Shown piece after piece: positions 20,713 through 50,612 of a stretch of DNA of 64,000 nt. Position numbers and translations under genes: made by a program. Origin of the DNA: Streptomyces sp. P9-A2. GTDB taxonomy: Bacteria; Actinomycetota; Actinomycetes; Streptomycetales; Streptomycetaceae. The stretch spans positions 6,510,001-6,574,000 of the forward strand of contig NZ_JAZIFX010000001.1 of assembly GCF_036634175.1 (NCBI RefSeq), given 5' to 3'. Positions within the stretch are counted from its first letter, which is position 1; every line of letters begins with the position of its first letter. The notes under the pieces were generated by a model, which worked only from the letters and a program-made list of their open reading frames with translations, made no database searches and was not told the DNA's origin.

Positions 20713-20953
20713 CAAAGTCCCAGAAAAGCCTCAGAGACTCCGTCACACTCCACCTCGCCTCGCATTTATGAAGGTCAGGAGGGGCGTGACAGCGCTTTTT
20801 CCGAGAACCCTCAGATGTCCCGGAAGAGACCAGCGAGCGCGGTGACCTGCCACGATGGACGGTTATGGACTGCTGACCTGCACGAATGACCTTTCGGCTG
20901 TTTCACGCTCGTACCCGTTGATGCAGCTGGAAGTCCCAGAAAAGTCCCAGGGA
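20713..20953 (+). repeat. att-like repeat, copy A (full arm-core-arm form)
   Basis: Left arm AAAGTCCCAGAAAAG at ~20714, core TCAGATGTCCCGGAAGA at 20811-20827, right arm GAAGTCCCAGAAAAGTCCCAG at ~20931. The interval between shares long stretches with copy B, including CCTTTCGGCTGTTTCACGCT. The core equals the last 17 bp of the HTH-murA gene at 50596. Arms on both sides of a core are the layout of a tyrosine-integrase attP. Confidence 0.7.
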
Positions 20954-21253
20954 CCGGCTGCTGCGGCTGAGGCGGTTGCGGACCTGGGCGGCCCGCTCTG
21001 GGATCGTGTGAGCGATGCTCCGTCGGCGGAGCCAGGGGCGTATTCCTTCGAGCTGTGGTCCCGTCAACACGACGACGCGGACGAGCCGGCTCGACGTTCT
21101 TCCTGGCGATGGACCTGGCGCAGGCGGTCGGGACGGCGATGGGGTCGTCGCGACGACGGCGAACACCGGCGCGGTCTTCCTGATGTCGGCGCTGCTCGTG
21201 CGCGCCGCCCTCACCTGGTACTTCACGCTCCGAGCAAGAGGGCGGGCGTAGGG

Positions 21254-21397
21254 CATGGAGCCGACCGGATAGACGCTCATACCGCTGGTGATCCGGTTCT
21301 CCCCGCCCGCCGACGGCGTGGTGATCAGAGGTGTCGTCACTACCGAACCACCACGGTCCAGCAGGGGTACGGACGCGGCCTTGACGATGGTGGTCAT
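21254..21397 (-). pseudogene. Cupin-type protein, N-terminal fragment
   Basis: From ATG 21397, preceded by GAGAGGAA, the frame reads MTTIVKAASVPLLDRGGSVV and a further ~28 residues ending in MSVYPVGS, which is the usual start of small cupins before their metal-binding HxH strand. The His-rich core never appears; the frame runs into unrelated sequence. It is a truncated remnant of about 48 codons. The flanking 20954-21253 holds no recognisable gene. Confidence 0.5.
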
Positions 21398-21600
21398 CCG
21401 GGGTTCCTCTCCACGTTCGGGGGCTGCGCCGACCGACGCTAGGCCGCCTCCCTGTCCTTGGGTGCCCTCCGGCGTGCAGCTTCACGTTGCGCTCCGGGAG
21501 GGGTGAGTTCGCAGAACCCGGCTGTACCGTCGGCCGGCGTCCCACGGCGTATCGACTCGTGCGCGCAACGTGCCGGAAAGGAAAGGCAGGTATCGGCCGG

Positions 21601-22205
21601 ATGAGGCTTCCCGTTCTCAGCGATGAGCAGATGACTCCGCGGCAGCAGGACCTGGCCGCTCGGATCGCCGCCCGGATCGCCGGTCGGCGCGGTGCCGTCC
21701 GCGGTCCGTTCCGCGGCTGGCTGTACAGCCCGGAGATGTGCGAGCGCGCCGAATCCCTCGGCGCCTTCGCCCGTTTCGACTGCAGCCTCCCCAAGCACTT
21801 GCGCGAACTGGCGCTGCTGATGGCGGCCCGGAACTGGGACGCGCAGTACTCCTGGAACGCTCATGTGCACCGGGCGATCGAGGCTGGCGTTCCGGAGGCC
21901 GCCGCCAAGACCATCGCAAAGAAGCGCGAGGCCGTTTTCGACAGCGAGGCGGACCAGGCCTTCTACCAGTTCTGCCGCGGGGTTCTCGAGGAGCACTTCG
22001 TCTTTGACGCCACCTGCGCGCGTGCCCTGGAGCACTTCGGTGCCAAGGGACTCGTCGACACCATCGGCGCACTCGGCAACTTCACCATGCTCGACATGTG
22101 CCTGAACGCCTTCCAGGTGGACCTCCGGGCCGACAAGGAACCCCGTTCCCGGACATCCGCGGCTACGAGCGCGTCACCCCGAGCACGGACGGACAGCGGC
22201 CGTGA
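21601..22205 (+). pseudogene. Carboxymuconolactone decarboxylase-family protein with C-terminal frameshift
   Basis: From ATG 21601, MRLPVLSDEQMTPRQQDLAA and the helical core with RELALLMAARNWDAQYSW match CMD/AhpD-like proteins of ~190 residues. In a run of four C at 22141-22144 the frame breaks: one inserted base would restore PPFPDIRGYERVTPSTDGQRP and a TGA at 22203. Without it the frame reads on into a downstream transporter fragment. The frameshift touches only the last ~20 residues, so some activity might survive. Confidence 0.7.
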
Positions 22206-22243
22206 GCCCGCCCGGGGACGGAAGCACGCGGGGAGGGACCGCC

Positions 22244-22500
22244 ATGACCGAGAGGGCGCCATCGCCACCGACCGATCGCCTTCCACGGCCGTCCTCCGCG
22301 TCAGGGGCGTCACCAAGAGCTTCGGCGGCGCGGCGGCCCTCAAGGGCGTCGACCTCGACCTCCACCCCGGCGAGATCCACGCCCTCATGGGCATGAACGG
22401 CGCCGGCAAGTCGACCCTGGTGCAGATCCTCTCCGGAGCGCACCAGGCCGACGGCGGCACCGTGGAGGTGGGGGGGGTACCCCTGGCCAGGTGGCTCGGC
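22244..22500 (+). pseudogene. Sugar ABC transporter ATPase, N-terminal fragment
   Basis: ATG 22244 (MTERAPSPPTDRL) with a one-base loss near 22290 leads into STAVLRVRGVTKSFGGAAAL and a perfect Walker A, GMNGAGKSTLVQ, then DGGTVEVGGVPL. This is the start of an RbsA/MglA-type ATPase. After about 85 codons the homology stops; Q loop, signature and Walker B are missing. It is a decayed fragment, formerly in an operon with the CMD gene. Confidence 0.75.
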
Positions 22501-22812
22501 CATCGGGGAGTGGGCGAGACCATCATCGAAGGCTCCGGCGATGACATCGACGTCCATGTGGTGATCTACTCCGAAGCCGCGCACGGCCGGTTCCTGTACC
22601 GGCGCACGAGCTCCCGCGGAACCCGCGACGCCACGCGGTGACCCGCACACGGCGCACCGCCATCAGCCGGTTCCCACGCCTTCTCGACGCCGTGGCGCGT
22701 TCCGTACGCCCGCTCCGGGAGGGATGCTGTGGGCAGGTGGCCGCGTTCACCGGCCTCCTTGTGCGACGGGGGCACGACAGGAAATGTGGCGGAGGGACAT
22801 CGGAGGTTGCTG

Positions 22813-24189
22813 GTGGCCGTGGGTACGACTCGGGCCCGGTGGTCCCGGCTGGCCGTCTATCCCGCCCGTGGCGTCGTCCTGGCCTTCGCGTTCGTCGTCG
22901 TGCTGGGTGCGGCCCTGCTGATGCTGCCGGCCGCCACCGAGCCCGGCAGGGACACCAACGTACTGACTGCCCTGTTCACCTCCACGGGGGCGGTCAGCGG
23001 CGGGCTGCCCCTCGTGGGGACCGGCAGCCACTGGAGCGCGTTCGGCGAGGGCGTGGTCCTGGCTCTGATCCAGATCGGCGGGTTCGGCATCATGACGCTC
23101 GCGTCGCTGCTGGCCCTGCTCGTCTCCGGTCGGCTGCGACTGCGGACACAGCTCGCCACGCAGGCGGAGAGGAGCCTCAGCGTCGGTGACATCCGTCGGG
23201 TGGTCCTGGGAGTCGCGGGCATCACGCTGGCCATCGAACTGGCCACGGCCGCCGTGCTCACGGTCCGTTTCCACATCGGCCATGGCCTGACGGCCGGAAA
23301 CGCCGTCTACCACGGGATCTTCTACGGGATCTCCGCCTTCAGCAACGCCGGGTTCGGGCTGCGCGACGACAACCTCGTCGGCTATGCGCACGATCCCTGG
23401 ATCGTCCTGCCGATCGCCGCCGCCTGTGTGCTCGGTGCCCTCGGCTTCCCCGTACTGTTCGAACTGCTGCGCAGCCGCCCGGGCGCCCGCGGCGGCACCC
23501 GGCACCGCTGGTCCCTGCACACCCGGCTCACCCTCCTCACCTCCGCGGTCCTGCTCGCCGTCGGCACCGTCATGACCTGCGCGCTGGAGTGGAGCAACCC
23601 GAGGACTCTCGGATCCCTGGAATGGGGGGACAAGCTGCTGGACGGGTTCTTCACCGCTGCCAGCTCGCGTACCGCCGGCTTCAACACCGTCGACACCGGT
23701 GCCATGGAACCGGCCACCCTCCTGGGCATCTGCGTGCTGATGTTCATCGGCGGCGGCAGCGCGGGTACCGCGGGCGGCATCAAGGTCACCACGTTCGCGG
23801 TTCTGGGAGCGGCGATCCTGGCCGAGATCCGCGGGCGCACCGACGCGGACATCATGGGCCGCCGGCTCTCCACGGCCACGCTGCGTCAGGCCCTCACCGT
23901 GGCGCTGCTGGGTGTGGGTCTCGTCATGGCGGGCACGTTGGTGCTGCTCGCCGTCACCGGGGAAAGAGCCGACGCGGTCCTGGCGGTCCTGTTCGAGGCC
24001 GTCTCTGCTTTCGGCACGGTCGGCCTGAGTACCGGCATCACCGGGAACCTTCCCGCAGCGGGCCAACTCACCGTCATCGTCATGATGTTCGTCGGGCGCG
24101 TCGGCCCGATCACTCTCGCCAGCGCGCTCGCACTGCGTCAGCGCGACCGCCGGTACACCCTGCCCGAGGAGCGACCCGTCATTGGCTGA
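22813..24189 (+). CDS. ktrB: KtrB/TrkH-family potassium uptake channel subunit
   Basis: 458 residues from GTG 22813, six bases after CGGAGG. The protein is highly hydrophobic with four pore repeats, each carrying the selectivity-filter Gly: FTSTGAVSGGLP, ISAFSNAGFGL, SSRTAGFNTVDTG and VSAFGTVGLSTG. This is the Trk/Ktr/HKT fold, about 10 membrane helices, which carries K+ (often Na+-coupled) across the cytoplasmic membrane. The Gly-rich gate segment GGGSAGTAGGIK is present. It overlaps the regulatory subunit gene by 8 bases, so the pair is translationally coupled. A kdpA fragment lies just downstream. Confidence 0.9.
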   Translation: MAVGTTRARWSRLAVYPARGVVLAFAFVVVLGAALLMLPAATEPGRDTNVLTALFTSTGAVSGGLPLVGTGSHWSAFGEGVVLALIQIGGFGIMTLASLLALLVSGRLRLRTQLATQAERSLSVGDIRRVVLGVAGITLAIELATAAVLTVRFHIGHGLTAGNAVYHGIFYGISAFSNAGFGLRDDNLVGYAHDPWIVLPIAAACVLGALGFPVLFELLRSRPGARGGTRHRWSLHTRLTLLTSAVLLAVGTVMTCALEWSNPRTLGSLEWGDKLLDGFFTAASSRTAGFNTVDTGAMEPATLLGICVLMFIGGGSAGTAGGIKVTTFAVLGAAILAEIRGRTDADIMGRRLSTATLRQALTVALLGVGLVMAGTLVLLAVTGERADAVLAVLFEAVSAFGTVGLSTGITGNLPAAGQLTVIVMMFVGRVGPITLASALALRQRDRRYTLPEERPVIG

Positions 24190-24901
24190 CCACTTCAAGT
24201 TACTGCGTCCACACCGACGTCGGCGTTCCGCCGACCGTCGCCCGGCCCGCGATTCCAGAGTGGCGGTGATCGGTCTCGGCCGTTTCGGACAGTCCGTGGC
24301 GGCGGAGCTGATGCGGCGTGGCTGGGACGTGCTCGGCGTCGACGCCGACGTCGGCGTCGTCCAGAAGGTCGGCGAAGAGCTGACCCAGGTTGCCGCCGCG
24401 GACTGCACCGACCCCGCTGTGCTGGCGCAGCTCGGCGTCGGCGAGTTCTCCCGCGTGGTGGTCGGTATCGGCACCGACCTGGAAGCCAGCATCCTGACCA
24501 CCTCCAACCTCGTCGACGCCGGCGTGGCCGCCATCTGGGTTCGGGCCACCACCCGGCAGCACGGACAGATCCTGGAACGCATCGGTGCCCACCACATCGT
24601 CCTGCCCGAGCACGACATGGGCGAGCGCGTGGCCCACCTGGTCACTGGCCGGATGCTGGACTTCATCGCCTTCGACAGCGATTACGCGCTGATCAAGACG
24701 CTCGCCCCGAAGGTCGTCGGCGGGATCCCGCTGGGCGAGAGCCGGGTGCGCAGTACGTACGGCGTCACCGTCGTCGGCATCAAACGCCCCGGCGCCGACT
24801 TCACTCACGCCACCGCCGAGACGGTCGTCCATCCCGGCGACGTCATCATCGTCACAGGCAGGACCCGGGCGGTGGAGATGTTCGCGGAGCTGGACCGGTG
24901 A
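24182..24901 (+). CDS. ktrA: KtrA/TrkA-type RCK regulatory subunit of potassium uptake
   Basis: 239 residues from TTG 24182, inside the end of ktrB. Residues ~25-150 are an RCK_N Rossmann fold with VAVIGLGRFGQSVA and the acidic GVDAD at the end of beta 2; residues ~155-239 are an RCK_C domain (SRVRSTYGVTVVGIKRPG). In the family an octameric ring binds ATP/ADP and opens KtrB. The N-terminal extension of ~22 basic residues is unusual but contains no domain. Operon partner of ktrB. Confidence 0.9.
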   Translation: MADHFKLLRPHRRRRSADRRPARDSRVAVIGLGRFGQSVAAELMRRGWDVLGVDADVGVVQKVGEELTQVAAADCTDPAVLAQLGVGEFSRVVVGIGTDLEASILTTSNLVDAGVAAIWVRATTRQHGQILERIGAHHIVLPEHDMGERVAHLVTGRMLDFIAFDSDYALIKTLAPKVVGGIPLGESRVRSTYGVTVVGIKRPGADFTHATAETVVHPGDVIIVTGRTRAVEMFAELDR

Positions 24902-24937
24902 GACGCACCGTCAACGCAGGCACTACGGCCTCAGACA

Positions 24938-25060
24938 TCAGCGGAATGACAATCCAGCTCGGCCGCGCAGCATCGCGAGCCCGCTCATGGTGTTGAACCA
25001 CTGCGTGTCCGCGTTCGGACCGGCGAAGGCCGAGCCGTTGTTGTCGGCGCTCGAGCTATA
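24938..25060 (-). pseudogene. kdpA C-terminal fragment
   Basis: The minus frame from 25060 to TGA at 24938 reads YSSSADNNGSAFAGPNADTQ and then FNTMSGLAMLRG. This matches the KdpA segment with the NNNGSAFAGL and YNTTLGxAMLxGR motifs that form part of the pore of the KdpFABC K+ pump. Only about 40 codons remain and the reading then ends. The 5' side is cut at about 25060, 18 bp before the MITE. Confidence 0.75.
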
Positions 25061-25078
25061 GGGGGTCTGTCAAACGAG

Positions 25079-25281
25079 CGGCCCTGTCTCACATTCGGTG
25101 GTGACGGTAAGTAGTTTCCGTGACTGGCAGTAACACTCCCAGGCCAGCACGGGTGTAGCGACCGTCGGCACCGTGTCTGTCCCGCTCGATGGCGCGTCTG
25201 CGGCTGCTCTCCTCGGAGCCCGGAGCAGGCACATCACATCGGTGATGACGTTCCGTCACCACCGAATGTGAGACAGGGCCG
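25079..25281. mobile_element. 203-bp MITE with perfect 29-bp terminal inverted repeats
   Basis: CGGCCCTGTCTCACATTCGG... at 25079-25107 is the exact reverse complement of 25253-25281. The 145-bp interior has no ORF with a start and ribosome site. Size, perfect ends and lack of a transposase define a miniature inverted-repeat element; the GGCCCTGTCTCAC tip resembles IS ends. No clear target duplication is visible (flanks AAACGAG and AACGTTT are only partly alike). Confidence 0.8.
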
Positions 25282-25348
25282 AACGTTTTACAGTCCCCGG
25301 CGCGGCGTCCCGGGAGATCCTGGGACGGCGTGCCGAGGCCGGCTGAGG

Positions 25349-25741
25349 TCAGGCAGCCAGCTGCCGCAGCAGGTCGGACGAGTCGTGCAGCGCCGTCATC
25401 TGTACGAAGCGACCATCGCTGACCTTGTAGATGGCGTACTCGGTGATCTCGAAGGAGGTGCCGGAGGGAGGAACGCCGAGCCACTCCTTCACCGGGGTGC
25501 CGGTGTTGATCGCGCGCACGGCGATCCGGTCCCGGTCGAACAGCAGCTCCTTGACCTCCCAGTGGAGGTCCGGAACGGCGTCGAGGTTGTACTTCATGAC
25601 CGCGATGACGTCGTCGCGGGTGCCCGGTTCGCCGTTCAGCACGACGTCGTCGGCGATGAACTCGTCCATGCGGTCGAGCTCGCGGACATCGAGCGCCGCC
25701 ACGTAGCGCAGGTACCAGTCCTTGAGGCCGGAGTCGGTCAT
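25349..25741 (-). CDS. SnoaL-like / NTF2-fold protein
   Basis: 130 residues from ATG 25741. The pattern [58 protein letters not shown] and [18 protein letters not shown] is that of SnoaL-like polyketide-cyclase or ester-cyclase family proteins, a cone-shaped alpha+beta fold. No catalytic residue set can be assigned with certainty, and the substrate is unknown. It sits next to the MITE and 460 bp from a minus-strand SDR. Confidence 0.85.
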
Positions 25742-26203
25742 CGGTTTCTCCTTCTGGGTCGTCGAACCCTGTGCGGGAACCGAGGGAGAGTGGCGAGGAC
25801 CGGTGCCCCGCTCAACTCGCTACCGAGGTTAGGGATGGCGACGGTGGTGGCCAGAGTCCTCCCGAGCCCGGGGACTGGGAGTACCACGTTCGCCGCGCCG
25901 CGTGAACCTGGCCTCGATTCATGAGTGAGGACGAGGAAGGGCGCGCCGCACACGACGTGAGCAGAGGCTAGGTGTATTGACCCGCAGGGTTGTTGACGCC
26001 GTGCGTGCGGTGCTGTCCTGGACAGCACCACCACACCGAAGGTCTTCGCCATGATCAAGCCCGGCCGGCGTCAACAACGCTCATGATCAATGCAGTTAGG
26101 TCCTGCGTGTCCGGTCGCGGTCGCGTACGACGGTCGCAGCCCGCTCCGCATGCGCTGGAAGTGCCGGTGGAATCGGCGAGGAAGGTGTGTCGTCCGTTCA
26201 GCT

Positions 26204-26902
26204 TCACCACGGGAGGGGGCCGTAGCGGTCGATGATCCGACCGGTTCCGGCGCTGGGGTCCTCGGTGGCCAGCGTCACGATGGCGTCGGTTCCCTCGGCC
26301 ACGGTCTGGGTGCCGGTGTGGCCGTTGAGATCGGTTGCGGTGTAGCCGGGATCGACGGCGTTGAACCGGACGTCGCCGAACGCCTTCGCGTACTGAGTGG
26401 TCAGCATCGTGACGGCAGCCTTGGAGGCCGCATAGGCGGGGGCGATCACCTTCGACTCGACCCGTTCGGGGTCGTGGGTCAGTGCGACGGACCCCAGGCC
26501 GCTGCTGACGTTGACGACGGCCGGAGCGCCGGAGGCGCGGAGGAGCGGCAGGAAGGCCGTGGTGACCCGCACGACGCTGACGACGTTGGTGTCGAGCACC
26601 AGTGCGACCTCCGTGCCGGTCAGCTCCTCGACGGACACGATGCTGCCGGTGATACCGGCGTTGTTGATCAGGACATCGATCCGGCCCTCGTTGGCCGCGA
26701 CATCGGCGGCCGCGGCCGCAACCGAGGCATCCTCGGTGACATCGATCTGGACGAAGCGGGCACCGAGCGCTGTCGCCGCACGGCGTCCGCGGTCGACGTC
26801 GTGGGCACCGAGGAGCACAGTGTGGCCGACTTCGGTGAGGCGGCGGGCGGTCTCGAAACCGAGGCCCTTGTTGGCGCCGGTGATGAATGTGGTCTTGGGC
26901 AT
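26204..26902 (-). CDS. Short-chain dehydrogenase/reductase
   Basis: 232 residues from ATG 26902 (MPKTTFITGANKGLGFE). The NAD(P) motif TGANKGLG, the NNAG of beta 4, the catalytic Ser in NVSSGLGS and YAASKAAV (YxxxK) are all present, so the enzyme should be active as a classical SDR. Its KGLG and the acidic ending of beta 2 are typical of NADPH-preferring members. Divergent from the MmyB-like regulator across 113 bp, so it may be that regulator's target. The longer upstream frame lacks homology. Confidence 0.9.
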   Translation of the reverse strand: MPKTTFITGANKGLGFETARRLTEVGHTVLLGAHDVDRGRRAATALGARFVQIDVTEDASVAAAAADVAANEGRIDVLINNAGITGSIVSVEELTGTEVALVLDTNVVSVVRVTTAFLPLLRASGAPAVVNVSSGLGSVALTHDPERVESKVIAPAYAASKAAVTMLTTQYAKAFGDVRFNAVDPGYTATDLNGHTGTQTVAEGTDAIVTLATEDPSAGTGRIIDRYGPLPW

Positions 26903-27015
26903 GCCCCAAACCTTTGCCGAGCCTGCCGGAACCAGCCAGGGAACGGTTCTCGGTAGGACCAGCAGTACCACCGAGCGAGCACGGAGACAGACATGTGGCC
27001 GCTTACGATGCAGGG

Positions 27016-27885
27016 GTGAACAATGGCCATGCCGTCGACAACCAGCTGGGAGCGACGCTTCGAGCCTGGCGGGACCGGCTCTCGCCAGAGGCCGTCGGAC
27101 TGCCGGTGGACAGGGCGCGTCGATCGCCGGGCCTGCGGCGTGAGGAACTAGCCGAGCTGGCCGGTCTCTCCGTCGACTACCTTGTGCGACTCGAGCAGGG
27201 CCGGGCCGTCAACCCCTCCGAGCAGATCGTCGGCTCGTTGGCCCGCGCGCTGCAGCTCTCCCAGGACGAGCGAGACCACCTCCATCGGCTCGCCGGGTTC
27301 CGGCCGCCGCAGGACCGGCGGGTCGTCGACGACATTCCGCCGAGCATGCGGCGGCTGCTGACCCTGCTCGACTCCACTCCGGTCGCGGTCTTCGCCGCAG
27401 ACTGGCAGCTGGTCTGGTGGAACCCCAGGTGGGCAGCGCTGTTCGGCGAACCCACGAGGATCGGGGCCGAGGAGCGCAACCTGGTGCGGCTGCGCTTCCC
27501 GGTCGCCTCGGACCGCGGTCGTTTGACGAGCTGGCCGGTGATCCCGGTCAACGCCGAGGCCGCCGACCGGGCCCTCGTGGCCGACCTGCGCCGAGCCGCG
27601 GCCCGGTTCCCCGACGATCCGCGCGTGTCCGAGCTGGTGGCCGGCAGGGTCGCCGGCAACCCCCGGTTCGCCGCGTTCTGGGCCGACGCCGCCGTGGGGC
27701 GGCACGCTGAGGACCGCAAGACCATCCGGCACCCCGTCATCGGGGAGGTGAGCGTCGACTGCGACGTCCTGACGGACGGGGACACCGATCTCAAGGTCGT
27801 CGCCTACACGGCGGTCCCGGGCAGTGAGGACGAGTCCAAGCTCGAGCTCGCCGGCATCATCTCGCCTCCAAGGAGCGACGCGTGA
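27016..27885 (+). CDS. MmyB-like XRE-family transcription regulator
   Basis: 289 residues from GTG 27016. An N-terminal helix-turn-helix spans residues ~8-75, with RRSPGLRREELAELAGLSVDYLVRLEQG, the typical Streptomyces XRE form. Residues ~95-270 are the MmyB-like ligand-binding domain (PAS-like), including WNPRWAALFGEP and NPRFAAFWADAAVG. The family regulates neighbouring redox enzymes and antibiotic genes and may bind a fatty acid-like ligand. It is divergent from an SDR and overlaps the F420 reductase gene by four bases (GTGA), so both flanking enzymes are likely targets. Confidence 0.92.
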   Translation: MNNGHAVDNQLGATLRAWRDRLSPEAVGLPVDRARRSPGLRREELAELAGLSVDYLVRLEQGRAVNPSEQIVGSLARALQLSQDERDHLHRLAGFRPPQDRRVVDDIPPSMRRLLTLLDSTPVAVFAADWQLVWWNPRWAALFGEPTRIGAEERNLVRLRFPVASDRGRLTSWPVIPVNAEAADRALVADLRRAAARFPDDPRVSELVAGRVAGNPRFAAFWADAAVGRHAEDRKTIRHPVIGEVSVDCDVLTDGDTDLKVVAYTAVPGSEDESKLELAGIISPPRSDA

Positions 27886-28544
27886 CCACGATCGGCATCA
27901 TCGGAGCGGGCGAAGTGGGCAGCCAGCTCGCCCGCGCAGCCGTGGCCCACGGTTACCAGGTGGCCATCGCCAATTCACGAGGACCCGAAACACTGACGCA
28001 CCTCGTCGACGAGCTCGGACCCTCGGCCCGTGCCGCAACGGCGGCCGACGCCGCCGAAGCGGGCGACTTCGTGATCATCGCCGTCCCCCTCAAGCTGGTC
28101 AACGGCATGCCTGTGGAGCAGCTGGCCGGCAAGATCGTGCTCGACACCAACAACTACATGCCCTGGCGCGACGGCCACTTCCAGGCCATCGACTCGGGTG
28201 AGGAGACCGTGCACGAGTTGCGGCAGGAGCAGTTGCCCACTTCAAAGGTCGCCAAGGCGTTCACCCACATCCAGGCTCCGCGCCTCTTCCTCTCCGCCAG
28301 TTCTCCGGGCACTCCCGGCCGGCACGCTCTCTCGGTCTCCAGCAACCACCCCGAGGCGGTGGAGCTCGTCACGCGCCTGTACGACGAGTTCGGATTCGAC
28401 ACCGTCGACAACAGCCCACTCAGCGAGTCCTGGCGAAGCGGCCCGGGTCAGCCCGCCTGGCTGTCGCACGCCCACCAGACGCGCGAGCAACTCGCCGCCA
28501 ACCTGGCCGACGCGCACCGGATCAGGTACCCCGTCCGAGGCTGA
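27882..28544 (+). CDS. NADPH-dependent F420 reductase-like protein (NAD(P)-binding)
   Basis: 220 residues from GTG 27882, overlapping the regulator's stop. MTTIGIIGAGEVGSQLARAA is a Rossmann dinucleotide site; the following IANSRGPETL is the NADP-binding form of Fno/F420H2:NADP reductase relatives. VLDTNNYMPWRDG and FTHIQAPRL are also typical of the COG2085 family. It probably shuttles electrons between NADPH and a deazaflavin or other acceptor. Translationally coupled to the MmyB-like regulator. Confidence 0.88.
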   Translation: MTTIGIIGAGEVGSQLARAAVAHGYQVAIANSRGPETLTHLVDELGPSARAATAADAAEAGDFVIIAVPLKLVNGMPVEQLAGKIVLDTNNYMPWRDGHFQAIDSGEETVHELRQEQLPTSKVAKAFTHIQAPRLFLSASSPGTPGRHALSVSSNHPEAVELVTRLYDEFGFDTVDNSPLSESWRSGPGQPAWLSHAHQTREQLAANLADAHRIRYPVRG

Positions 28545-29073: not shown

Positions 29074-29160
29074 AGGCCGACGTCCTTCCGGACGCATCAC
29101 GTGGAGTGCCGGGCAATCCGCCCCCAGCCCCTGAGGCCGACACAGTCTCCCGGCCCGGCC

Positions 29161-31150: not shown

Positions 31151-31202
31151 CTGTCCGTGGGGCCGGGTGCGGTGGGGTGGTGCCCAGGGGCGGCGCGGGG
31201 AG

Positions 31203-31649: not shown

Positions 31650-31703
31650 ACCGATCCCTCTCTCACTGTGGTGTGGTGTGGTGCCGGGGCGCGCGGACGG
31701 CGG

Positions 31704-35908: not shown

Positions 35909-43104
<7,196 letters not shown>

Positions 43105-43108
43105 CTCG

Positions 43109-45649
43109 ATGTCATCGCCCCGGCGAATCAAAGCCCTTGTCATCGGTGCCGGTATCGGCGGTCTGACGTGCGCCGTCGCACTCAGGCGCGTCGGTATCGA
43201 CGTCGAGGTGTACGAGCGTGCCACCGAACTGCGCGAAGCGGGCTCCGGTCTGTCGGTCATGAGCAACGCCGTCACCGCCCTGGCCGCCTTCGGTATCGAC
43301 CTCGGCCTGGACAAGCGCGGCCAGGCCGTGGAGTCGTTCAGGATCATGGACCGGCGTGGCCGGAGGATCAGAGACCTGCCGTTCGAGGAAGCCTCCCGTC
43401 AGGCGGGCGCGCCCAGCTTCTGCCTGAGCCGCGCGGACCTCCAGGAGGCCCTGCTGACGGAGGCCGCAGACTGCCCGATCCGCCTGGGAGCGACGGCAGT
43501 CGGCTTCGAGGCCGCCGACACGGGCGTCACCGTCCGCTTCGCGGACGGCCGTTCGGCGAGCGGGGACATCCTGATCGGCGCCGACGGCTTCCACTCGGCC
43601 GTACGGCACCACCTCGTCGGCCCCGAGACATCACGGGACAGCGGTTACGGTTTCGGGCTCGGCATCGTCCCCTTCCACCACCCGCGCCTCCCCTCGGGCG
43701 GAGTGCGGCACTACTGGGGCAGCGGACAGCGTTTCGGCCTCATCGACATCGGCCACGGTCGCTGCTACTGGTGGGCGACCACGCCCCTGCCCGCCGACGC
43801 ACCCGCCCGGGACCGTGTCAAGGACACCCTCACGCAGGCGTACGCGGGATGGGCCGAGGAGGTACGGGCGGTGATCGAGGCCACACCGCGGGAGGACATC
43901 CTCACCGTGCCCTCCCGCGACCGCGACTTCCTGGAACGCTGGGGGGACGGTCCCATCACCCTTCTCGGTGATGCCGCCCACCCCATGCTGACCACCCTCG
44001 CCCAGGGGGCGGGCACGGCCATCGAGGACGCCGTCGTCCTGGCCCGCACGCTCGCCGAGCGCGCGAGGGACGACGACCTGACACCGGCCCTGCGCGCCTA
44101 CGAAGAACGACGCCGGGACCGCACCAGGGCCCTGGTGGACGGGTCCCGCGCGATGAGTGACCTGACCCACGGCGCCGGCCCTCGTCGGCGGCTGGTCCGG
44201 GACGCCTACTTCCGGCTGGTGCCACGCTTCCTCCTCCTTCGGCAGACCGCGCAGGCCCTCGCCTTCCCGGACGGTCCGGCCGCCGCACCCCACCTTGTCC
44301 AGCGCGAACTCAGCCCCTTGGAACGCCTGTACTGGATCGCCGACCAGACCTCACCCCTCAACGTCATCGCCCGGGCCCGCGTCCATGGACACCTGCCGAC
44401 GGCGTCGCACCGCCGCGCCCTGGACGCTCTACAGGTCCGGCACCCCTTGCTGCGTGTCGCGATCACCGACGACGGCACGGGAGCGCACCCCGCCTTCACG
44501 CCGCTGGACGGGCGACCGGTCCCGCTCCGCCATGTCACCGTGCCGCCCGACGATCCCGCAGCCGACACCTGGTGGGAGCACGAGGTCAACGACCGTGAAC
44601 TGGCCGAGAGCATCGAATGGTCCGCCGGGCCGCTGCTGCGCACAGTGGTGATCAGCTCGGGAGGATCGGGCGGCGAGGACGAGGGGAACGTCCACGACCT
44701 GCTGTTGACGGCATCGCACGTCATCGCCGACGGCAAGACGTGCCTGTCCCTGCTTCGGGAATGGATCGAACTCGTTTCGGAATCGGCCTCCGGTACGCCG
44801 CTTCGCGTCACGTCGCTGCGAGCACGGCCGGCGACGGAGGACCTGCTCCCGCCTCGCCACCGGGGCGCGGCAGGTGTCGCCGGACTCAGGGCCATGATGC
44901 TGCGCGACCAGCAGGCGGCGCGGCGGCGCCCCACACAGCGGGTCGTCCCCAGCCGGCAGGTCCCGTTCGGGCAGCGGCGTACCCGGATGGAGCACCGGCT
45001 CCTCACCGCCGACCAGCTGGATCTGCTGGTGCGGGCTGCCAAGCGCCACGGCACCACGGTCCATGGCGCCCTGGCCGCCGCGATGGTGACGGCTGTCGCC
45101 CATGACGCGGGAACCACCACGACCACGCGTTTCTCGATCGGCTCGCCGGTCGACTTCCGTGGTGATCTCGAACCGCCCGTCGCCCACGACGAGGTCGGCA
45201 CCTATGTGGCCACGGTTCCCTCCCTCGTCTGCCACGAGCACGACCGGCCGTTGTGGCCCATGGCCCGGGAGATCAGCCAGGACCTGGTGCGACGCCGGAG
45301 ACGCCAGGACCACCTGGCCATGCTCAGCCTGCCGCGCCGGGCAGGGCCGAAGTCGCCTGCGGACAGCGAGTCGTTCATGCGGTTCATGGACGAGAAGGGG
45401 CCGATCAACCTGTGCCTCTCCAACGTCGGCCGTTACGAGTTCCCCGGCCGGGTGGGCCCGTGGCATGTCAGCGACGCCCAGTTCATCACGGGCGTCTCGG
45501 TCATGGGCGCCATCGTGGCGACAGCCACCACCAGCCATGACCAACTCGCCTGGAACTTCAGCTACGTCGAGGGCGTCGTCCCGACACCGCGTGCACGGCG
45601 CATCGCCGACGACTCCGTACACACCCTGCTGTCCGCGCTCTCCGAGTGA
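43109..45649 (+). CDS. FAD-dependent monooxygenase fused to PapA/condensation-like acyltransferase
   Basis: 846 residues from ATG 43109, four bases after the NRPS stop. Residues ~8-375 are a group A flavoprotein monooxygenase: GAGIGGLTCAVALRR (FAD), GADG near 165, and GDAAHPMLTTLAQGAG near 287. Residues ~395-840 are a chloramphenicol-acetyltransferase-like fold: LSPLERLYWI opening, HPLLRVAI, the catalytic HVIADG near 537 (second His, Asp and Gly kept) and NVGRYEFPG, as in phthiocerol dimycocerosyl transferases and alcohol acetyltransferases. One protein may thus hydroxylate a scaffold and then acylate it. The fusion is unusual. Confidence 0.9.
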   Translation: MSSPRRIKALVIGAGIGGLTCAVALRRVGIDVEVYERATELREAGSGLSVMSNAVTALAAFGIDLGLDKRGQAVESFRIMDRRGRRIRDLPFEEASRQAGAPSFCLSRADLQEALLTEAADCPIRLGATAVGFEAADTGVTVRFADGRSASGDILIGADGFHSAVRHHLVGPETSRDSGYGFGLGIVPFHHPRLPSGGVRHYWGSGQRFGLIDIGHGRCYWWATTPLPADAPARDRVKDTLTQAYAGWAEEVRAVIEATPREDILTVPSRDRDFLERWGDGPITLLGDAAHPMLTTLAQGAGTAIEDAVVLARTLAERARDDDLTPALRAYEERRRDRTRALVDGSRAMSDLTHGAGPRRRLVRDAYFRLVPRFLLLRQTAQALAFPDGPAAAPHLVQRELSPLERLYWIADQTSPLNVIARARVHGHLPTASHRRALDALQVRHPLLRVAITDDGTGAHPAFTPLDGRPVPLRHVTVPPDDPAADTWWEHEVNDRELAESIEWSAGPLLRTVVISSGGSGGEDEGNVHDLLLTASHVIADGKTCLSLLREWIELVSESASGTPLRVTSLRARPATEDLLPPRHRGAAGVAGLRAMMLRDQQAARRRPTQRVVPSRQVPFGQRRTRMEHRLLTADQLDLLVRAAKRHGTTVHGALAAAMVTAVAHDAGTTTTTRFSIGSPVDFRGDLEPPVAHDEVGTYVATVPSLVCHEHDRPLWPMAREISQDLVRRRRRQDHLAMLSLPRRAGPKSPADSESFMRFMDEKGPINLCLSNVGRYEFPGRVGPWHVSDAQFITGVSVMGAIVATATTSHDQLAWNFSYVEGVVPTPRARRIADDSVHTLLSALSE

Positions 45650-45715
45650 CCGGTCGAGCTCGTTGCGCACCCCCCTTTTCCTGACCGCCCCTCCTATCGA
45701 AAGGCCCACGCTGCG

Positions 45716-46549
45716 ATGACCGCTGCACCGATCCGGACGCTGACCCGGCGCCGTACCCTCACCGCCGGTGAGAGCGGCTCTCTGTGGGCAGCCAGCCCCT
45801 CGTGCGGCATCCTCGAATTCCGCGGCACACGTCTGCGGCTCACGGTGGACGACCCCGCCGAGGTTCTGTTCCCGACCGACTGCGGGCTGAGCCTGATCGC
45901 CGCTCTCGACGGCGGCGAAGGTCCCGACCTGAAGGGCGTCAACGCCCTGGACATCGGTTCCGGTTCCGGTCTCTACAGCGTCGCCCTGCTCGCGGCCGGT
46001 GCCGAGCGGGTCACCGCTCTGGACATCAATCCCGCCTCCGCCGCCCAGACCGCGGCGAACGTGGTGGCCAACGGTCTCGACACCACGCGTCTGACCTGTG
46101 TCACCTCACCGCTGGCGGAGTACACACCCGACGAACGCTTCGACCTGGTGATCACCAATCCGCCGCACCTTCCCCATGACCCGAGTTATGCGAGGGCTGA
46201 CGGGCTGGAAACCGCTCTCGTCGCCCGGAGGGGCGGCCGAGCGGTGTACGACGACGTCGTCGAGCGTATGGACGCGCTCCTTGCGCCGGGTGGCACCCTG
46301 CTCATGGCGCATTCCTCGCTCTCCGACATCCCGAGGACCGTCGCGGAACTCACCGCGCGCGGTTACGAGAGCGACACGCTCGAAATCTTCGAGATGGACA
46401 TTCCGCTCCTGGCGTATGCCGAGCACATGGACACCATGCTGAGCCTGCTGAAGGAGCGGCGAGCAGCGGGCCGCGCTGAATTCGACGGCACGCGCTTCAC
46501 GGTGCACGCCCTGATGTTCCGACGCCCCTGGGACGCCCCTCACCGCTGA
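45716..46549 (+). CDS. SAM-dependent methyltransferase with NPPH motif
   Basis: 277 residues from ATG 45716. Motif I is ALDIGSGSGLYSVALLAAGA, followed by ALDINPASAAQTAANV and the catalytic VITNPPHLPHDP. The N-P-P-H/Y motif is typical of PrmC/RsmC-like enzymes that methylate planar nitrogens, such as amide or aromatic amine N. The N-terminal ~60 residues are extra. It is the last gene of the plus-strand biosynthetic unit, 66 bp after the FAD fusion, so N-methylation of the product is likely (inference). Confidence 0.85.
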   Translation: MTAAPIRTLTRRRTLTAGESGSLWAASPSCGILEFRGTRLRLTVDDPAEVLFPTDCGLSLIAALDGGEGPDLKGVNALDIGSGSGLYSVALLAAGAERVTALDINPASAAQTAANVVANGLDTTRLTCVTSPLAEYTPDERFDLVITNPPHLPHDPSYARADGLETALVARRGGRAVYDDVVERMDALLAPGGTLLMAHSSLSDIPRTVAELTARGYESDTLEIFEMDIPLLAYAEHMDTMLSLLKERRAAGRAEFDGTRFTVHALMFRRPWDAPHR

Positions 46550-46578
46550 CGCCTTCTCGGCACCGTCCGACGAGCCGT

Positions 46579-46609
46579 ACGGACCCGCCGTGTTCCCCGG
46601 CGGGTCCGT
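46579..46609. terminator. Bidirectional hairpin between convergent units
   Basis: ACGGACCCGCCG pairs perfectly with CGGCGGGTCCGT around a 7-base loop. It lies between the plus-strand NRPS operon and the minus-strand KAS III/ACP pair. Confidence 0.75.
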
Positions 46610-46742
46610 GTGACCAGGTCAGGCTGCCGGATTCCGCGGCGCATGCCCGCACCGCCGCGGGCCGCTGTCCCGGCCTGCGGGACGCCGTGCAACTCGGCAC
46701 CGCGGCGGGCGCGGTCCGTCCTCGCCCGCGAGTCGCGGAGTC

Positions 46743-46976
46743 TCAGACCGACGCGCCGGCCTTGTCCTGCATCAACCGCGCGATGTCGGCCAGAGTGGCT
46801 GCGTCCGCCAATTCGTCGTGGTCGATCACGAGCCCGGGGTCCTTTTCCAGCACGAGGGACAGCTCCACCACGAACAGCGAGTCCAGGCCGAGCGCTGCCG
46901 GTGTGGCTTCGGGGGAGACCAGCTCGGGCCGCACCTGGAATGTGTCGGTCAGGACGTTGACCAGAATGTCGTACAC
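46743..46976 (-). CDS. Acyl carrier protein
   Basis: 77 residues from GTG 46976 with CCGGAGAAA upstream. Helix 2 carries the phosphopantetheine Ser in LGLDSLFVVELSLVLEKD; the rest (ILVNVLTDTFQVRPELV and TLADIARLMQDKAG) follows the four-helix ACP pattern. The start lies inside the end of the KAS III gene (28-bp overlap), so they are translationally coupled. Discrete ACP plus KAS III pairs load or make unusual acyl starters. Confidence 0.9.
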   Translation of the reverse strand: MYDILVNVLTDTFQVRPELVSPEATPAALGLDSLFVVELSLVLEKDPGLVIDHDELADAATLADIARLMQDKAGASV

Positions 46977-48007
46977 GTTGTTTCTCCGGAGTGGGTCAGT
47001 GCTGAAGGGGTGAGGTGCGGCCACACGAGAGTGGTGGCGCCCCAGGTCAGGCCGCCGCCGAAAGCTGTCAGCAGGACGCGATGTCCGGGCTGGAGGTCTC
47101 CTGCGCGGCGGGCGTGGTCGAGCAGGATCGGAATGGACGCGGCCGAGGTGTTGCCGACATGCTCGATATTGGCCAGCGCACGGTCCGCCGCCATACTCAA
47201 CCGTTCGGCGAGTATGGCGGTGATCCGTGCGTTCGCCTGGTGGGGGACGATCCGGTCCACGTCCTGCGGCTTCCACCCGGCGGCGTCCAGAGCCACGCGG
47301 GAGGCGGAAGCCATGTGCTCCACGGCCCGCCGGAACACCTCCCGCCCCTGCAGACGTAGATACGGATCCGCCGGGACGGCGCGTGCCGCCGAGCGTTCCT
47401 CGGTCCCGCCGCCGCGTAGGGTGATCAGGTCCCTGCCACCGCCATCGCTGTCCAGCACGCAGCGTCCCAGGGCGCCGGGTTCCTCGCGGTGACCCGAACG
47501 CAGGACGACAGCGCCGGCGCCGTCGCCGAAGAGCATGCTCGTGGGGTCGTCCGGCGCGACGCTCAGCGACAGCGCATCAGTACCGATCACCAGAGCGGAG
47601 TCGGCGGTGCCAGCGGCGATCAGGCCCTGCGCGACACCCAGGGCATAGACGAAGCCTGCGCACACGGCCTGGACGTCCAGCGCGGCCGCACCGGCCAGTC
47701 CCAGCCGTGAGGCGACGCGCGGAGCGGTGCCGGGGCACGGCCTGTCCGGCGACGTGGTCGCGACGACCACGGCTGCGACATCGCCGGCCGCGGCCTCGGC
47801 CAGCGCCTCGCGACCGGCCGCGACCGCTAGATCCCCGCTGGTGGTACCCGGCTCGACGACGTGCCGGAACCGGATGCCGGAACGCTGGAACATCCATTCG
47901 GGTGACCTGCCCAGACGCTCGGCCAGCTCCTCATTGGCGACCCGACGGGACGGCAGACACGATCCGACGCCCACCAAGACGGACGCCGGGACTCCTTGAT
48001 CCCTCAC
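46949..48007 (-). CDS. KAS III (FabH-like) ketosynthase/acyltransferase
   Basis: 352 residues if started at GTG 48007 (GGAGAA close by); a TTG or GTG about 12 codons later is also possible. The full catalytic triad is present: Cys in DVQAVCAGFVYAL (~113), His in VPHQANARI (~254) and Asn in HVGNTSAAS (~287). The DAGxGA region FGDGAGAVVL is also typical. Such enzymes condense acyl-CoA with malonyl-ACP or transfer acyl groups. Paired with its own ACP and facing the NRPS cluster, it may make the acyl group used by the starter C domain or by the acyltransferase half of the FAD fusion (inference). Confidence 0.92.
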   Translation of the reverse strand: MRDQGVPASVLVGVGSCLPSRRVANEELAERLGRSPEWMFQRSGIRFRHVVEPGTTSGDLAVAAGREALAEAAAGDVAAVVVATTSPDRPCPGTAPRVASRLGLAGAAALDVQAVCAGFVYALGVAQGLIAAGTADSALVIGTDALSLSVAPDDPTSMLFGDGAGAVVLRSGHREEPGALGRCVLDSDGGGRDLITLRGGGTEERSAARAVPADPYLRLQGREVFRRAVEHMASASRVALDAAGWKPQDVDRIVPHQANARITAILAERLSMAADRALANIEHVGNTSAASIPILLDHARRAGDLQPGHRVLLTAFGGGLTWGATTLVWPHLTPSALTHSGETTCTTFWSTS

Positions 48008-48427
48008 TTCTCCACCCTCGACGTCACGGCTCGCCCTCACGTCATCCCGCCCGACTGCCGACGCAGACACAGCGGAACGCTGCGCCGACACTGGACTGGC
48101 AGCATTCTGTGCGACTACACGCACACGCGGGGTCTCATGTGGCTCAGTCGTACCACGCCGACCATCCCGGCGGACCGAGCGACCCGCTGCCTCGACCGGC
48201 AGGTTCACCGAGCCGCGCGGCGAGTTGGAGGCGATGGACAGGGCGTTTTTCGTGAGTGGCCGGCGGATGCTCGGCGTGCCCCTCCCTGGCGAGCCATGCA
48301 TGACGACCGCAGGCATCATCGGCCGGACTGCCTTTCTGCCCTGCTCGTCGCCGACGATCGGCTGCGACGACGCTTCACGCCACGGATCCGTGCTGCGCAC
48401 GTGTACGCCGTGCATGTCCCCTCAGCG
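48008..48427. other. Upstream region of KAS III, no gene
   Basis: 420 bp; neither strand gives a recognisable protein. It probably contains the promoter of the KAS III/ACP unit. Confidence 0.3.
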
Positions 48428-48429
48428 AT

Positions 48430-49004
48430 GAGCCGTTACAACTGTCGATCTTGACGCTCCGGCGACCACGAGCCATGCCTCCGACGCAGGAGAACGGCTC
48501 CCGATCGAGATGCCGTGGAGCCCCAGGTTCGACCTGATCTTCGACGACGATGCCCCAGGTTCCTTCCCGCACCGCGCGCTGCGTCGCGACTGGCAGGCCG
48601 ACGGCATCGGGCTCGACCAGGTCGCCGTGGAGCACGCCCCCAACAGCACATCGGAGATCGGGCTCGGCGGGAGCTACGACGTGCCGTCGTTCGAGTTCGC
48701 TGCCAGGTTCGGCCTACGCCAACTTCCGGGCACCACGAACCTCGTGGGCCTGGACGGTCGGCGCGCCTCCGCAGTCTTCCGCGCGGACAGACCCTGGCGC
48801 GGCCACCTACTCTTCCTGCGCCGTGATCTCGTCGAGGGTTTCGCCGGTGATCGTCGGATCATGCAAGTGGCCTGGGGCGAGCGAGAGGTGGCCGTCGACT
48901 GGCACTCTGTTCCTTCCCGGGTACGCGCGGCGCAGCGCAGCCACGCGAACGTGTGGTGTCACATCCGGCTGCTCGGGGCGGATCAGAGCAGCGCAGAGAA
49001 CTAA
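48430..49004 (+). pseudogene. Unrecognised protein, apparently lacking its N-terminus
   Basis: After a TGA at ~48428 the frame stays open and looks coding before any ATG; the first ATG is 48510 (MPWSPRFDLIFDDDAPGSF). Downstream strands such as HAPNSTSEIGLGGSYDVPSF, LLFLRRDLVEGFAG and WGEREVAVDWHSVP have the composition of a folded C-terminal domain. I do not know the family. The absence of a start with a ribosome site suggests a 5'-truncated gene; 164 residues would be made from ATG 48510. Confidence 0.45.
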
Positions 49005-49080
49005 CGGGCCGTACGCCGCCAGAGCGCGAGTCCTGGCCGGGCGGCGGCTCCGGCAGATGCACACCGAGGTCTGCCCGGCG

Positions 49081-49100
49081 GGCTTGTCGGCGGACAAGCC
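49081..49100. terminator. Small hairpin between convergent ORFs
   Basis: GGCTTGTC-GGCG-GACAAGCC, a perfect 8-bp stem followed by TGTTTTCCC on the plus strand. Fits a terminator for the truncated ORF (plus) and the toxin gene (minus). Confidence 0.5.
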
Positions 49101-49181
49101 GGCGATCGACTGTTTTCCCGCGTACTCATTCCTTGCGCTCTTGCTCCGATAACTGGCAGATGCGGTCTCACCTGGATGCGA

Positions 49182-49850
49182 TCAGTCGATGTCCGGATCA
49201 TCGGCCTCTTCGAGGAGACGGGCCGCGAGGTCGTCGGCCCACTCCAAGGCCCAGGCGCGGAGTGCGGTGATGGTGGCGTCATTGAGCCCATAGGCGGCGA
49301 AGGCTTCGTCGTCGGTCCACTCGGCGCCCGTGAGGTTCGACTGCAGATCCTCGCGTTCGAAGCGGCCACGAGCGTGCCGACGGCCGAACTCCTCGAGCTC
49401 GGCATTGGTCCAACGGCGGGAGGCCGCGAACACGTCGATCAGATCACGGGGCGCTCCGCGGTCGGCGAGGGCGCGGACCTTGGTCCCGATCACGTCCTCC
49501 TCCGCGAGGACGGGCCCGTACGGGGTCTGGGCGACCGGCCGCCAGAAGATCTCCTTGAGGATGTCGACTTCGCAGTCCTGCCCGGTGGCCGGGTCGGTCA
49601 CGGTGAAGCGGGCGGACAGCGGGGCGGTCTCCAGCGCGTGCACCTTCCAGCCACGGGCTTCCAGGCCGGCGCGGAGCGTGGCGGCGATGTCGACCATGGG
49701 CGCCGGGTTCTCGGTGGCGACATCGGGGTCCTGGCTGGGGCGGTTCACGAGGCGGTGCGCCCGTACGGCATACCCTCAAGTGAGGACCAGGGGATACGGG
49801 GAGCCGAGCGCGATCACATCCGCCAGGAGCCGCGTGTGCAGCTCCGGCAT
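49182..49850 (-). pseudogene. AbiEii/MenT-like nucleotidyltransferase toxin with in-frame stop at codon 25
   Basis: From ATG 49850 the frame reads MPELHTRLLADVIALGSPYP, LVLT, TGA (49778-49776), GYAVRAHRLVNRPSQDPDVAT and on to 49182. In the copy at 28876 the same position is GGG, so the stop replaces the first Gly of the Gly-Gly turn. The rest is complete: NRPSQDPDV with the Asp pair, ATLRAGLEARGW and the VDILKEIFWRP strand. Translation could restart at GTG 49748, giving 188 residues without the first strand. AbiEii/MenT toxins transfer nucleotides to tRNA or other targets. Preceded by its likely antitoxin. Confidence 0.75.
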
Positions 49851-50046
49851 GTCCGTCACGCGGCTGCCCGGGTGCGGGAGGCGAGCTGGGGGAAGGCGTC
49901 TTCCCACACGGTGCGCACGGTGCGGCCGATGAGCGTGCGCAGCACCGGCCACAGCTGGAGGAGCAGGTCCTGGTTGAGGTAGCGGGGCAGGTCGTCGTGC
50001 AGGCCCTCGTGCAGGACGGCGCGATACAGGCCCATGCGCTGGCGCG
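49762..50046. repeat. Duplicated toxin-antitoxin segment, copy 2
   Basis: Nearly identical to 28788-29073 (see there). Here the antitoxin is complete and the toxin is full length apart from one nonsense codon. Confidence 0.85.
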
Positions 50047-50248
50047 GCTTGCCCAGGTCGTACGACGTCATCCCGGACCAGGCCATGTGCAGCGGCAGCT
50101 CCACGACCCCCTGGGTCGGGCCGCGCAACTCGTCCAGTGACTCCGGCAGACGCCGCCGAAATTTCTCGCGGTACAGCGCGAGGTCCTCGACGTCCGCGCC
50201 AGAGAGGCCCGTCGGCGCGGGGGCGGGGTGCTGTGGGCTGGAGGACAT
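49856..50248 (-). CDS. Putative antitoxin partner of the nucleotidyltransferase
   Basis: 130 residues from ATG 50248 (MSSSPQHPAPAPTGLSGADV). It is mostly helical and acidic-basic mixed, with LALYREKFRRRLPESLDELR and GLYRAVLHEGLHDDLPRYLN segments and a basic C-terminus. I recognise no DNA-binding motif with certainty. Its stop is 5 bp before the toxin ATG, the usual antitoxin-first order, and a truncated copy accompanies the truncated toxin at 28.9 kb. The antitoxin role is inferred from position. Confidence 0.6.
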   Translation of the reverse strand: MSSSPQHPAPAPTGLSGADVEDLALYREKFRRRLPESLDELRGPTQGVVELPLHMAWSGMTSYDLGKPRQRMGLYRAVLHEGLHDDLPRYLNQDLLLQLWPVLRTLIGRTVRTVWEDAFPQLASRTRAAA

Positions 50249-50495
50249 GACTTCATTATGACGGCCGGGATGTGGTGCGGGCCATGATGTGCGAGCCGGT
50301 GTCTGGAGTGAGCAGCGCGGACCAGTGCCGGGTGAGCATGGTTGTGGCAGCGTGTTCTGCCCCGAGCAAGAAGCATGGGCTGTCGGTCATGACGCTCTGG
50401 GCGCCCGCACGCGGGGCAGCGAGCCAAGAAAAGGTCCTGACCTGGCCCTTTTCCCGGACTTGCTCCGGCCCACAAGATGACACCTTCGGTCCCGG

Positions 50496-50612
50496 CCAAA
50501 AGTCCCAGAAAAGTCCCAGAGGCGCCGCCACGCCCCCTCCTGCCTCGCGTTCACGTAGGTCAGAAGGTGTGTGACGGCGCCTTTTCTGAGGAACTTCAGA
50601 TGTCCCGGAAGA
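50496..50612 (+). repeat. att-like repeat, copy D (junction with HTH-murA)
   Basis: Left arm CAAAAGTCCCAGAAAAGTCC at 50497, GTCAGAAGGTGTGTGACGGCG, then core TCAGATGTCCCGGAAGA at 50596-50612, which is the stop and last codons (IFRDI) of HTH-murA on the minus strand. To the right is murA coding sequence, unlike copies A-C. This is the expected form of a hybrid site between an element end and a chromosomal attB. Confidence 0.75.

What the first reader, a model, noticed from the sequence alone, without database searches (positions are those of the whole stretch)
20713..50612. Four direct att-like repeats define a murA-anchored accretion island
Copies A-D share ~100 bp of left arm and the 17-bp core TCAGATGTCCCGGAAGA. 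In copy D the core is exactly the 3' end of HTH-murA, which stays intact. Copies A-C continue with a common right flank (GACC-GC...GTGA-CTGC) that D lacks. This is the expected pattern for serial site-specific insertion at attB, leaving element-element junctions in the middle and an element-chromosome junction at murA. The blocks are 8.4, 1.9 and 19.5 kb, and the NRPS cluster is the murA-proximal block. An integration site at a murA 3' end would be unusual; most known actinomycete elements use tRNA genes.
Basis: partly seen in the sequence, partly recalled or inferred. Interest (0 to 1): 0.78.

Follow-up and report, generated by a model that had tools for sequence, protein, structure and literature searches.

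The report
Mobile-island docking site beside murA gene
A set of repeated sequences next to a cell-wall gene in a Streptomyces marks where mobile DNA islands, one here carrying a peptide-synthesis gene cluster, appear to dock by site-specific recombination; related species use the same place, and I found no earlier description of it.

Summary
The repeats are real and are best read as attachment sites. Core TCAGATGTCCCGGAAGA is exact at 20811, 29259 and 50596, nowhere else in the genome; copy C (31113) has one base deleted and one changed. The core is the last 17 bp of HTH-murA. In relatives, alignments break at the core edges: left arm+core+murA, core+right arm, or both arms. Arms carry AGTCCCAG repeats. 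A tyrosine integrase family lies about 150 bp from murA, pointing at it (38 of 51 loci within 400 bp; 0 of 25 more distant relatives). Between S. acidiscabies and S. scabiei the island end is identical for 2,936 bp up to the core, while murA differs at 201 of 1,530 positions. Plasmid pSCL3 carries a P-core-P' site. So the murA 3' end is an integration hotspot. The window holds the right part of a roughly 100-120 kb variable region without integrase or FtsK-type genes; A is an internal junction, not the left border. Serial accretion is likely but unproven: relative G130 has the cargo reordered with no core at the junction. It works like PAISt (bacA): a new member of a known kind.

The parts
20701..20810 (+). 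Site A left (P) arm: one exact and one degenerate AGTCCCAG, inverted repeat
20811..20827 (+). Site A core (internal P-core-P' junction, attP-like)
20828..20952 (+). Site A right (P') arm, AGTCCCAG pair at 20932-20950
20828..29258 (.). Block A-B (8.4 kb): ABC fragment, TrkH/TrkA potassium uptake, MmyB-type regulator, F420 oxidoreductase
28788..29071 (-). Truncated copy of an AbiEii-type pair next to site B (94% identical to 49762-50045)
   Evidence: Pfam match is on the G057 relative
29150..29258 (+). Site B left (P) arm
29259..29275 (+). Site B core
29276..29400 (+). Site B right (P') arm
29276..31112 (.). Block B-C (1.85 kb); the two ORFs scanned have no Pfam match
31010..31155 (+). Site C, degenerate P-core-P' site (core-like 31113-31128)
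31129..50595 (.). Block C-D (19.5 kb): P450, NRPS (two A, two C, two PCP, TE), FAD monooxygenase/PapA-like, methyltransferases, short-chain dehydrogenase, KAS III
49182..50248 (-). AbiEii-type nucleotidyltransferase (interrupted by a stop) with small partner gene, beside the P arm
   Evidence: Pfam match is on the G057 relative
50486..50595 (+). Site D left (P) arm with exact AGTCCCAG pair and strong hairpin downstream of murA
50596..50612 (+). Site D core = last 17 bp of HTH-murA (attR)
50596..52125 (-). HTH-murA, target gene, intact ORF

Best explanation
A-D are attachment sites of a family of integrative elements whose tyrosine integrase recombines a P-core-P' attP with an attB made of the last 17 bp of HTH-murA. 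Shown from sequence: core position, arm structure, empty versus occupied site, integrase family beside murA, identity break at the core, and an attP-type site on a plasmid. Inferred: the integrase binds AGTCCCAG arm sites and exchanges strands in the core; murA keeps its reading frame because the core replaces its last codons; a hairpin in the P arm ends murA transcription. In the window, D is the murA-side attR and A, B, C are element-element junctions (P arm of one element, P' arm of the next) left by successive insertions. The blocks, including the NRPS block, are now without integrase and FtsK-type transfer genes, i.e. decayed or cis-mobilizable modules inside a roughly 100-120 kb variable region downstream of murA.
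For: Genus search with site A: 53 of 150 genomes hit (own genome included); rows break at the core. The 20 rows ending at query 126-128 (one is the window's own D) all abut murA's 3' end (searches compared by eye). Of 44 same-contig right-arm rows (two are the window's A and B), 36 lie 3' of murA in the expected orientation within 250 kb; 20 further right-arm rows lie on contigs without murA and were not placed, and G019's row 74-134 was left out. Of 22 full-length members, K, H, R, H, Y in 22 and the first R in 21, one gap; Pfam Phage_integrase. Arm repeats: >=2 AGTCCCAG in 67 of 84 P and 32 of 40 P' arms versus 1 of 61 and 0 of 94 in control flanks (arms were picked by similarity to arms that hold the repeat, so part of this is built in). 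Empty site G107 versus G097: same native gene on the left (75% over 571 bp), 3.8 kb between two cores in G097. S. acidiscabies/S. scabiei: 2,936 identical bp up to the core, then 201 of 1,530 differ. pSCL3 carries P-core-P' (core with 2 mismatches) beside an integrase C-terminus.
Against: No attL with native left flank found in this genome. No close integrase in the genome (best 52% over 170 aa with a stop). In G130 the NRPS and Trk blocks are in a different order with no core found between (draft assembly). 8 of 44 right-arm sites lie elsewhere, and sites with a rumA-like left flank occur in several genomes. Integrases of G066 and G124 (95%) are not next to murA. Of the 51 loci, L218, L245, L247, L250, L260, L261, L263 have no murA in the locus, L220 ends at a contig end, L266 (34-aa match) has murA on the other strand, and L219, L221, L230, L248 (partial) have murA at 421-593 bp. 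L256 and L265, counted below 60%, hold shorter segments at 91-94% and 84% and have no murA. The roughly 130-170 bp between the native gene and the core do not align between G107 and G097. No activity was measured.
Confidence: 0.9

Rival explanations
1. The repeats are a dispersed intergenic repeat family (regulatory or terminator repeats) and the island is coincidental.
For: Some arm-bearing sites lie at unrelated loci (8 of 44); the P arm folds as a hairpin (z -5.2 at D, -2.2 at A, -2.5 at B).
Against: In this genome only A, B and D score above noise and C is visible beside them; left-arm rows ending at the core abut murA (20 of 20); an integrase family sits beside them; flanks swap at the core.
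Confidence: 0.03
2. The four copies arose by homologous or illegitimate duplication of the murA downstream region, not by site-specific recombination.
For: The 284-bp AbiEii segment beside B and D is 94% identical while A and D arms are only about 78% identical; G130 shows block reshuffling without a core.
Against: A-C carry a right arm that D lacks; the same arms and core bound different DNA in other species; plasmid pSCL3 carries both arms with the core and has the right arm, not murA, after it.
Confidence: 0.07
3. The stretch from A to murA was captured already as a composite and transferred whole, so the internal sites are inherited rather than products of serial insertion at this locus.
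For: Composite transfer of accreted islands is known (PMC5704250 passages); G130, a close relative, holds part of the same cargo at 98% identity.
Against: Block order differs between G000 and G130; arms A, B and D are only about 72-78% identical, so they differ in origin or age.
Confidence: 0.3

Closest known systems
PAISt of Streptomyces turgidiscabies (bacA 3' end, tyrosine recombinase intSt)
   Same: Site at the 3' end of a protein-coding gene; tyrosine integrase at one end of the island; internal att site; short C-terminal integrase remnants at internal or old ends; modular cargo including biosynthetic genes (PMC4057263: passages and section 17 seen).
   Different: Target is HTH-murA, core 17 bp instead of the palindrome TTCATGAA; integrase-bearing ends are found beside murA in many species; modular excision was shown experimentally for PAISt, not here.
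Accretion of AICEs/DAICEs in Streptomyces (tRNA-Arg and other sites)
   Same: Several elements in tandem between direct repeats at one site; decayed members with cargo (PMC9513070 passages).
   Different: AICEs carry traB, rep and int and mostly use tRNA genes (36 of 51 sites in that paper; 14 in protein-coding genes); no FtsK-type gene or integrase lies in this island.
CIMEs (cis-mobilizable elements)
   Same: Blocks bounded by att sites that have lost integration and transfer genes (definition seen in PMC5704250 passages).
   Different: Mobilization not shown; one att site (C) is degenerate; no close match to the integrase in the genome.

Membership tests
Tyrosine-integrase integrative element (the murA family in relatives) | Direct core repeats shared by target gene and element ends | tested here: met
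Tyrosine-integrase integrative element (the murA family in relatives) | Empty attB in a relative, occupied in another at the same place | tested here: met
   G107 versus G097
Tyrosine-integrase integrative element (the murA family in relatives) | Cognate tyrosine integrase encoded at the element end | tested here: met
Tyrosine-integrase integrative element (the window's own blocks, as autonomous elements) | Cognate tyrosine integrase encoded in the block | tested here: not met
   so the blocks are not filed as autonomous elements
Tyrosine-integrase integrative element (the murA family in relatives) | Arm-type repeats flanking the core in attP | tested here: met
   Sequence repeats only, binding untested (partly built in by selection); full site on pSCL3
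Tyrosine-integrase integrative element (the murA family in relatives) | Integrase-dependent excision or integration | not testable with these tools
   needs bench work
AICE | FtsK/TraB-type transfer gene | tested here: not met
   None of the 12 PF01580 matches of the genome lies between 6.43 and 6.57 Mb
AICE | Replication initiator gene | not tested
   -
CIME | Flanked by att sites of one integrase specificity | tested here: met
   A-B, B-C and C-D blocks lie between core copies; C is degenerate
CIME | Lacks integration and transfer genes | tested here: met
   (integrase and FtsK-type only)
CIME | Mobilized in cis by an element that integrates beside it | not testable with these tools
   -

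The most novel reading that the evidence does not exclude
The HTH-murA 3' end is a general docking port of Streptomycetaceae, served by its own integrase family that linear plasmids can carry, through which biosynthetic clusters and other cargo are gained and stacked; and some elements bear compound ends (rumA-type end plus murA-type core and P' arm at a near-constant spacing, 236-266 bp in four copies) that give them two alternative docking sites.
Probability: 0.3. Interest if true: 0.68.

Novelty: new member of a known kind. Interest (0 to 1): 0.52.

Why it matters
It gives a concrete mechanism and a marker (core plus AGTCCCAG arms) for how a variable region of Streptomyces chromosomes collects cargo, here an NRPS cluster, and adds HTH-murA to the few protein-coding docking genes known in the genus. 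HTH-murA was found in 149 of 150 genus genomes, although its last 17 bp vary by one to a few bases in many; a murA-adjacent integrase could be tested directly as an integration tool.

Tried and rejected
Searched for a native attL at the island's left end: none found, so the left border is only bracketed by synteny. Searched for an integrase or remnant in the window with two relatives' integrases (best E 0.58) and in the whole genome: none close. Asked how common the C-D cargo is: the FAD monooxygenase/PapA-like gene matches in 18 of 246 genomes at E <= 1e-120, own genome included, full-length in one piece in four; its place relative to murA was not checked except that in G036 it lies 1.9 Mb from murA and in G130 and G119 on other contigs. 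A U-tract terminator in the P arm was not found (0, shuffles 0.6) although the arm folds strongly. The integrase gave no match among phages at E <= 1e-20. Literature: of seven searches, four sought murA or carboxyvinyltransferase. None of the listed titles reports a murA integration site; one search listed 20 of 175 papers, of which I opened two; (7; 11) I opened none. A report in an unopened, supplementary or subscription text is possible.
Full report
OBSERVATION. The 17-bp core is exact at 20811, 29259 and 50596 of the window and at no other place in the 8.39 Mb genome. A fourth, degenerate copy lies at 31113-31128. All four have a similar left arm; A and B share about 115-125 bp of right arm, C only about the first two dozen bases, and D has the coding end of HTH-murA there. 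D's core encodes the last residues and stop of an intact 509-aa protein. The spacing is 8.4, 1.9 and 19.5 kb as stated.

RELATIVES. A search of 150 genus genomes with site A (20700-20960) hit 53, own genome included. The rows are modular: many cover only query 112-253 (core+right arm), many only 1-128 (left arm+core), some all of it. HTH-murA was located in 149 of the 150. Comparing coordinates by eye, all 20 rows that end at query 126-128 (one is the window's D) abut murA's 3' end. Of 44 right-arm rows on the same contig as murA (two are the window's A and B), 36 lie on its 3' side, in the expected orientation, within 250 kb; 8 do not: G094 four times and G007, G105, G109 and G110 once each. 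Left out of this count: 20 right-arm rows on contigs without murA, and G019's row 74-134. Some of the 36 at about 150 kb have a rumA-like left flank (G109, G127), so they are not necessarily part of a murA island.

SITE CLASSES AND ARMS. In the loci I had fetched (a sample biased towards murA, arms and integrase) there were 145 distinct core-like sites: 65 left arm+murA, 29 murA without the arm, 25 right arm only, 15 both arms, 4 left arm only, 7 neither. AGTCCCAG (up to one mismatch) occurs at least twice in 67 of 84 left arms and 32 of 40 right arms, against 1 of 61 and 0 of 94 in the control flanks. Because arms were recognized by similarity to arms that hold the repeat, part of this is built in; the point is that two arms of otherwise different sequence carry the same repeat. 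This is the layout of a lambda-type attP (general knowledge).

INTEGRASE. Tyrosine integrases were found next to the murA-side site in G024 and G125; the G125 one matches Pfam Phage_integrase and, by sequence, Tn1549-type Int chains of the PDB (the chains are labelled Int protein, the Tn1549 name is recalled). In the 150 genomes, 10 of the 12 listed matches at 74% identity or more lie 134-156 bp from murA's 3' end; the G066 and G124 copies do not. In a scan of named genomes 76 loci were found: sorted by highest-scoring segment, of 51 at 60% identity or more 38 have murA within 400 bp and four partial ones at 421-593 bp; of 25 below 60%, none. The rest of the 51: seven without murA in the locus, one cut by a contig end, one short match with murA on the other strand. 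L256 and L265, sorted below 60%, hold shorter segments at 91-94% and 84% and have no murA. The family extends to Actinacidiphila (L208, L214). Catalytic residues are conserved in 22 full-length members (one gap at the first arginine). C-terminal integrase remnants of about 17-105 aa lie beside other sites (the shortest at weak E-values), as reported for PAISt. One 51%-identical integrase (G071) also lies 79 bp from murA, with a different short arm, hinting that a second lineage uses the same gene.

TRANSFER. Between S. acidiscabies and S. scabiei the 2,936 bp left of the core are identical, whereas the 1,530 bp from the core on differ at 201 positions, the first at +33. Integrase and murA distances correlate only moderately (r 0.48 over 231 pairs of 22 loci); the integrase is the more similar in 106 of 231, and some pairs are strongly discordant in each direction. 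pSCL3, a 455-kb linear plasmid of S. clavuligerus, has an integrase C-terminus (93% over 43% of the query) followed by left arm, core (two mismatches) and right arm. G107 has an empty site and G097 a 3.8 kb insert between two cores with the same native gene to the left; the last 130-170 bp before the core do not align.

THE ISLAND IN THE WINDOW. Genes collinear with the murA-downstream genes of seven relatives lie at 6,428,543-6,437,995 in this genome, murA at 6,560,596. A pair of genes shared with G027 lies at 6,455,889-6,457,494, so the variable region is about 103-123 kb. The window holds only its right part and A is an internal junction. None of the 18 Phage_integrase (PF00589) or 12 FtsK-type (PF01580) matches of the genome lies in it. 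The C-D block carries an NRPS with P450, FAD monooxygenase/PapA-like protein, methyltransferases and a KAS III gene. Beside D, B and a G057 junction lies an AbiEii-type nucleotidyltransferase with a small partner, interrupted in D and truncated in B, on the side where integrase-bearing elements have int.

AGAINST A SIMPLE STACK. In G130, whose murA is 99% identical, the NRPS block (98.1% over 14.7 kb) is followed by part of the Trk block (98.6% over 1.9 kb) through 2.6 kb in which I found no core. The assembly is a draft, but taken at face value the cargo was also rearranged by other means, and I do not claim an order of insertions. No native attL was found.

KNOWN WORK. PAISt (PMC4057263; abstract passages and section 17 read) is the closest system. 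AICE accretion (PMC9513070), the AICE survey (PMC3218068), scab mobile elements (PMC10711302), CIMEs (PMC5704250), Synteruptor (PMC11195616) and Integrase-On-Demand (PMC12884075) were seen as passages; the word murA does not occur in the held main text of any of these seven. Zhang and Loria 2017 and Bellanger 2011 were seen only as reference titles. The searches that sought murA or carboxyvinyltransferase showed no title reporting a murA site, but most listed papers were not opened. Verdict: a real integration site and integrase family, apparently undescribed as far as these searches reach, of a known kind.

Noticed in passing
L089:311-573 and 10610-10862; L082, L083, L084 (rumA ends); window genome 6,176,580-6,176,700: A second apparent docking site at the 3' end of a rumA-like gene, with TGACGCTC repeats; the murA-type core and right arm follow 236-266 bp after a rumA 3'-end motif in four copies (L082, L083, L089 twice) and 234 bp after the rumA ORF in L084: a compound end. 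A Phage_integrase protein lies in L083.
   Followed up: partly
window 28788-29071 and 49762-50045: 94% identical segment of an AbiEii-type pair beside sites B and D; a G057 relative has the pair beside its junction. Possibly a stabilizing module at the element end.
   Followed up: partly
L142:16543-18044 (G071): A divergent integrase (51% identity) 79 bp from murA with a different short arm, suggesting a second lineage using the same target.
   Followed up: partly
left-arm+murA sites; loci: At least 18 of the 65 left-arm+murA sites read TCAAATG instead of TCAGATG (listed variants only), versus few in the other classes; the element may supply murA's last wobble base, which would place strand exchange right of core position 4.
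   Followed up: no
G094 (L087 and rows): Four right-arm sites 0.9-5.9 Mb from murA: three at 7.6-7.75 Mb and one at 0.78 Mb of an 8.8 Mb contig.
   Followed up: no
L123-L140: In 18 genomes without hits the genes downstream of murA also differ; only 7 share a collinear set, and three (G009, G044, G005) show a weak left arm at murA. The region is variable beyond this element family.
   Followed up: partly
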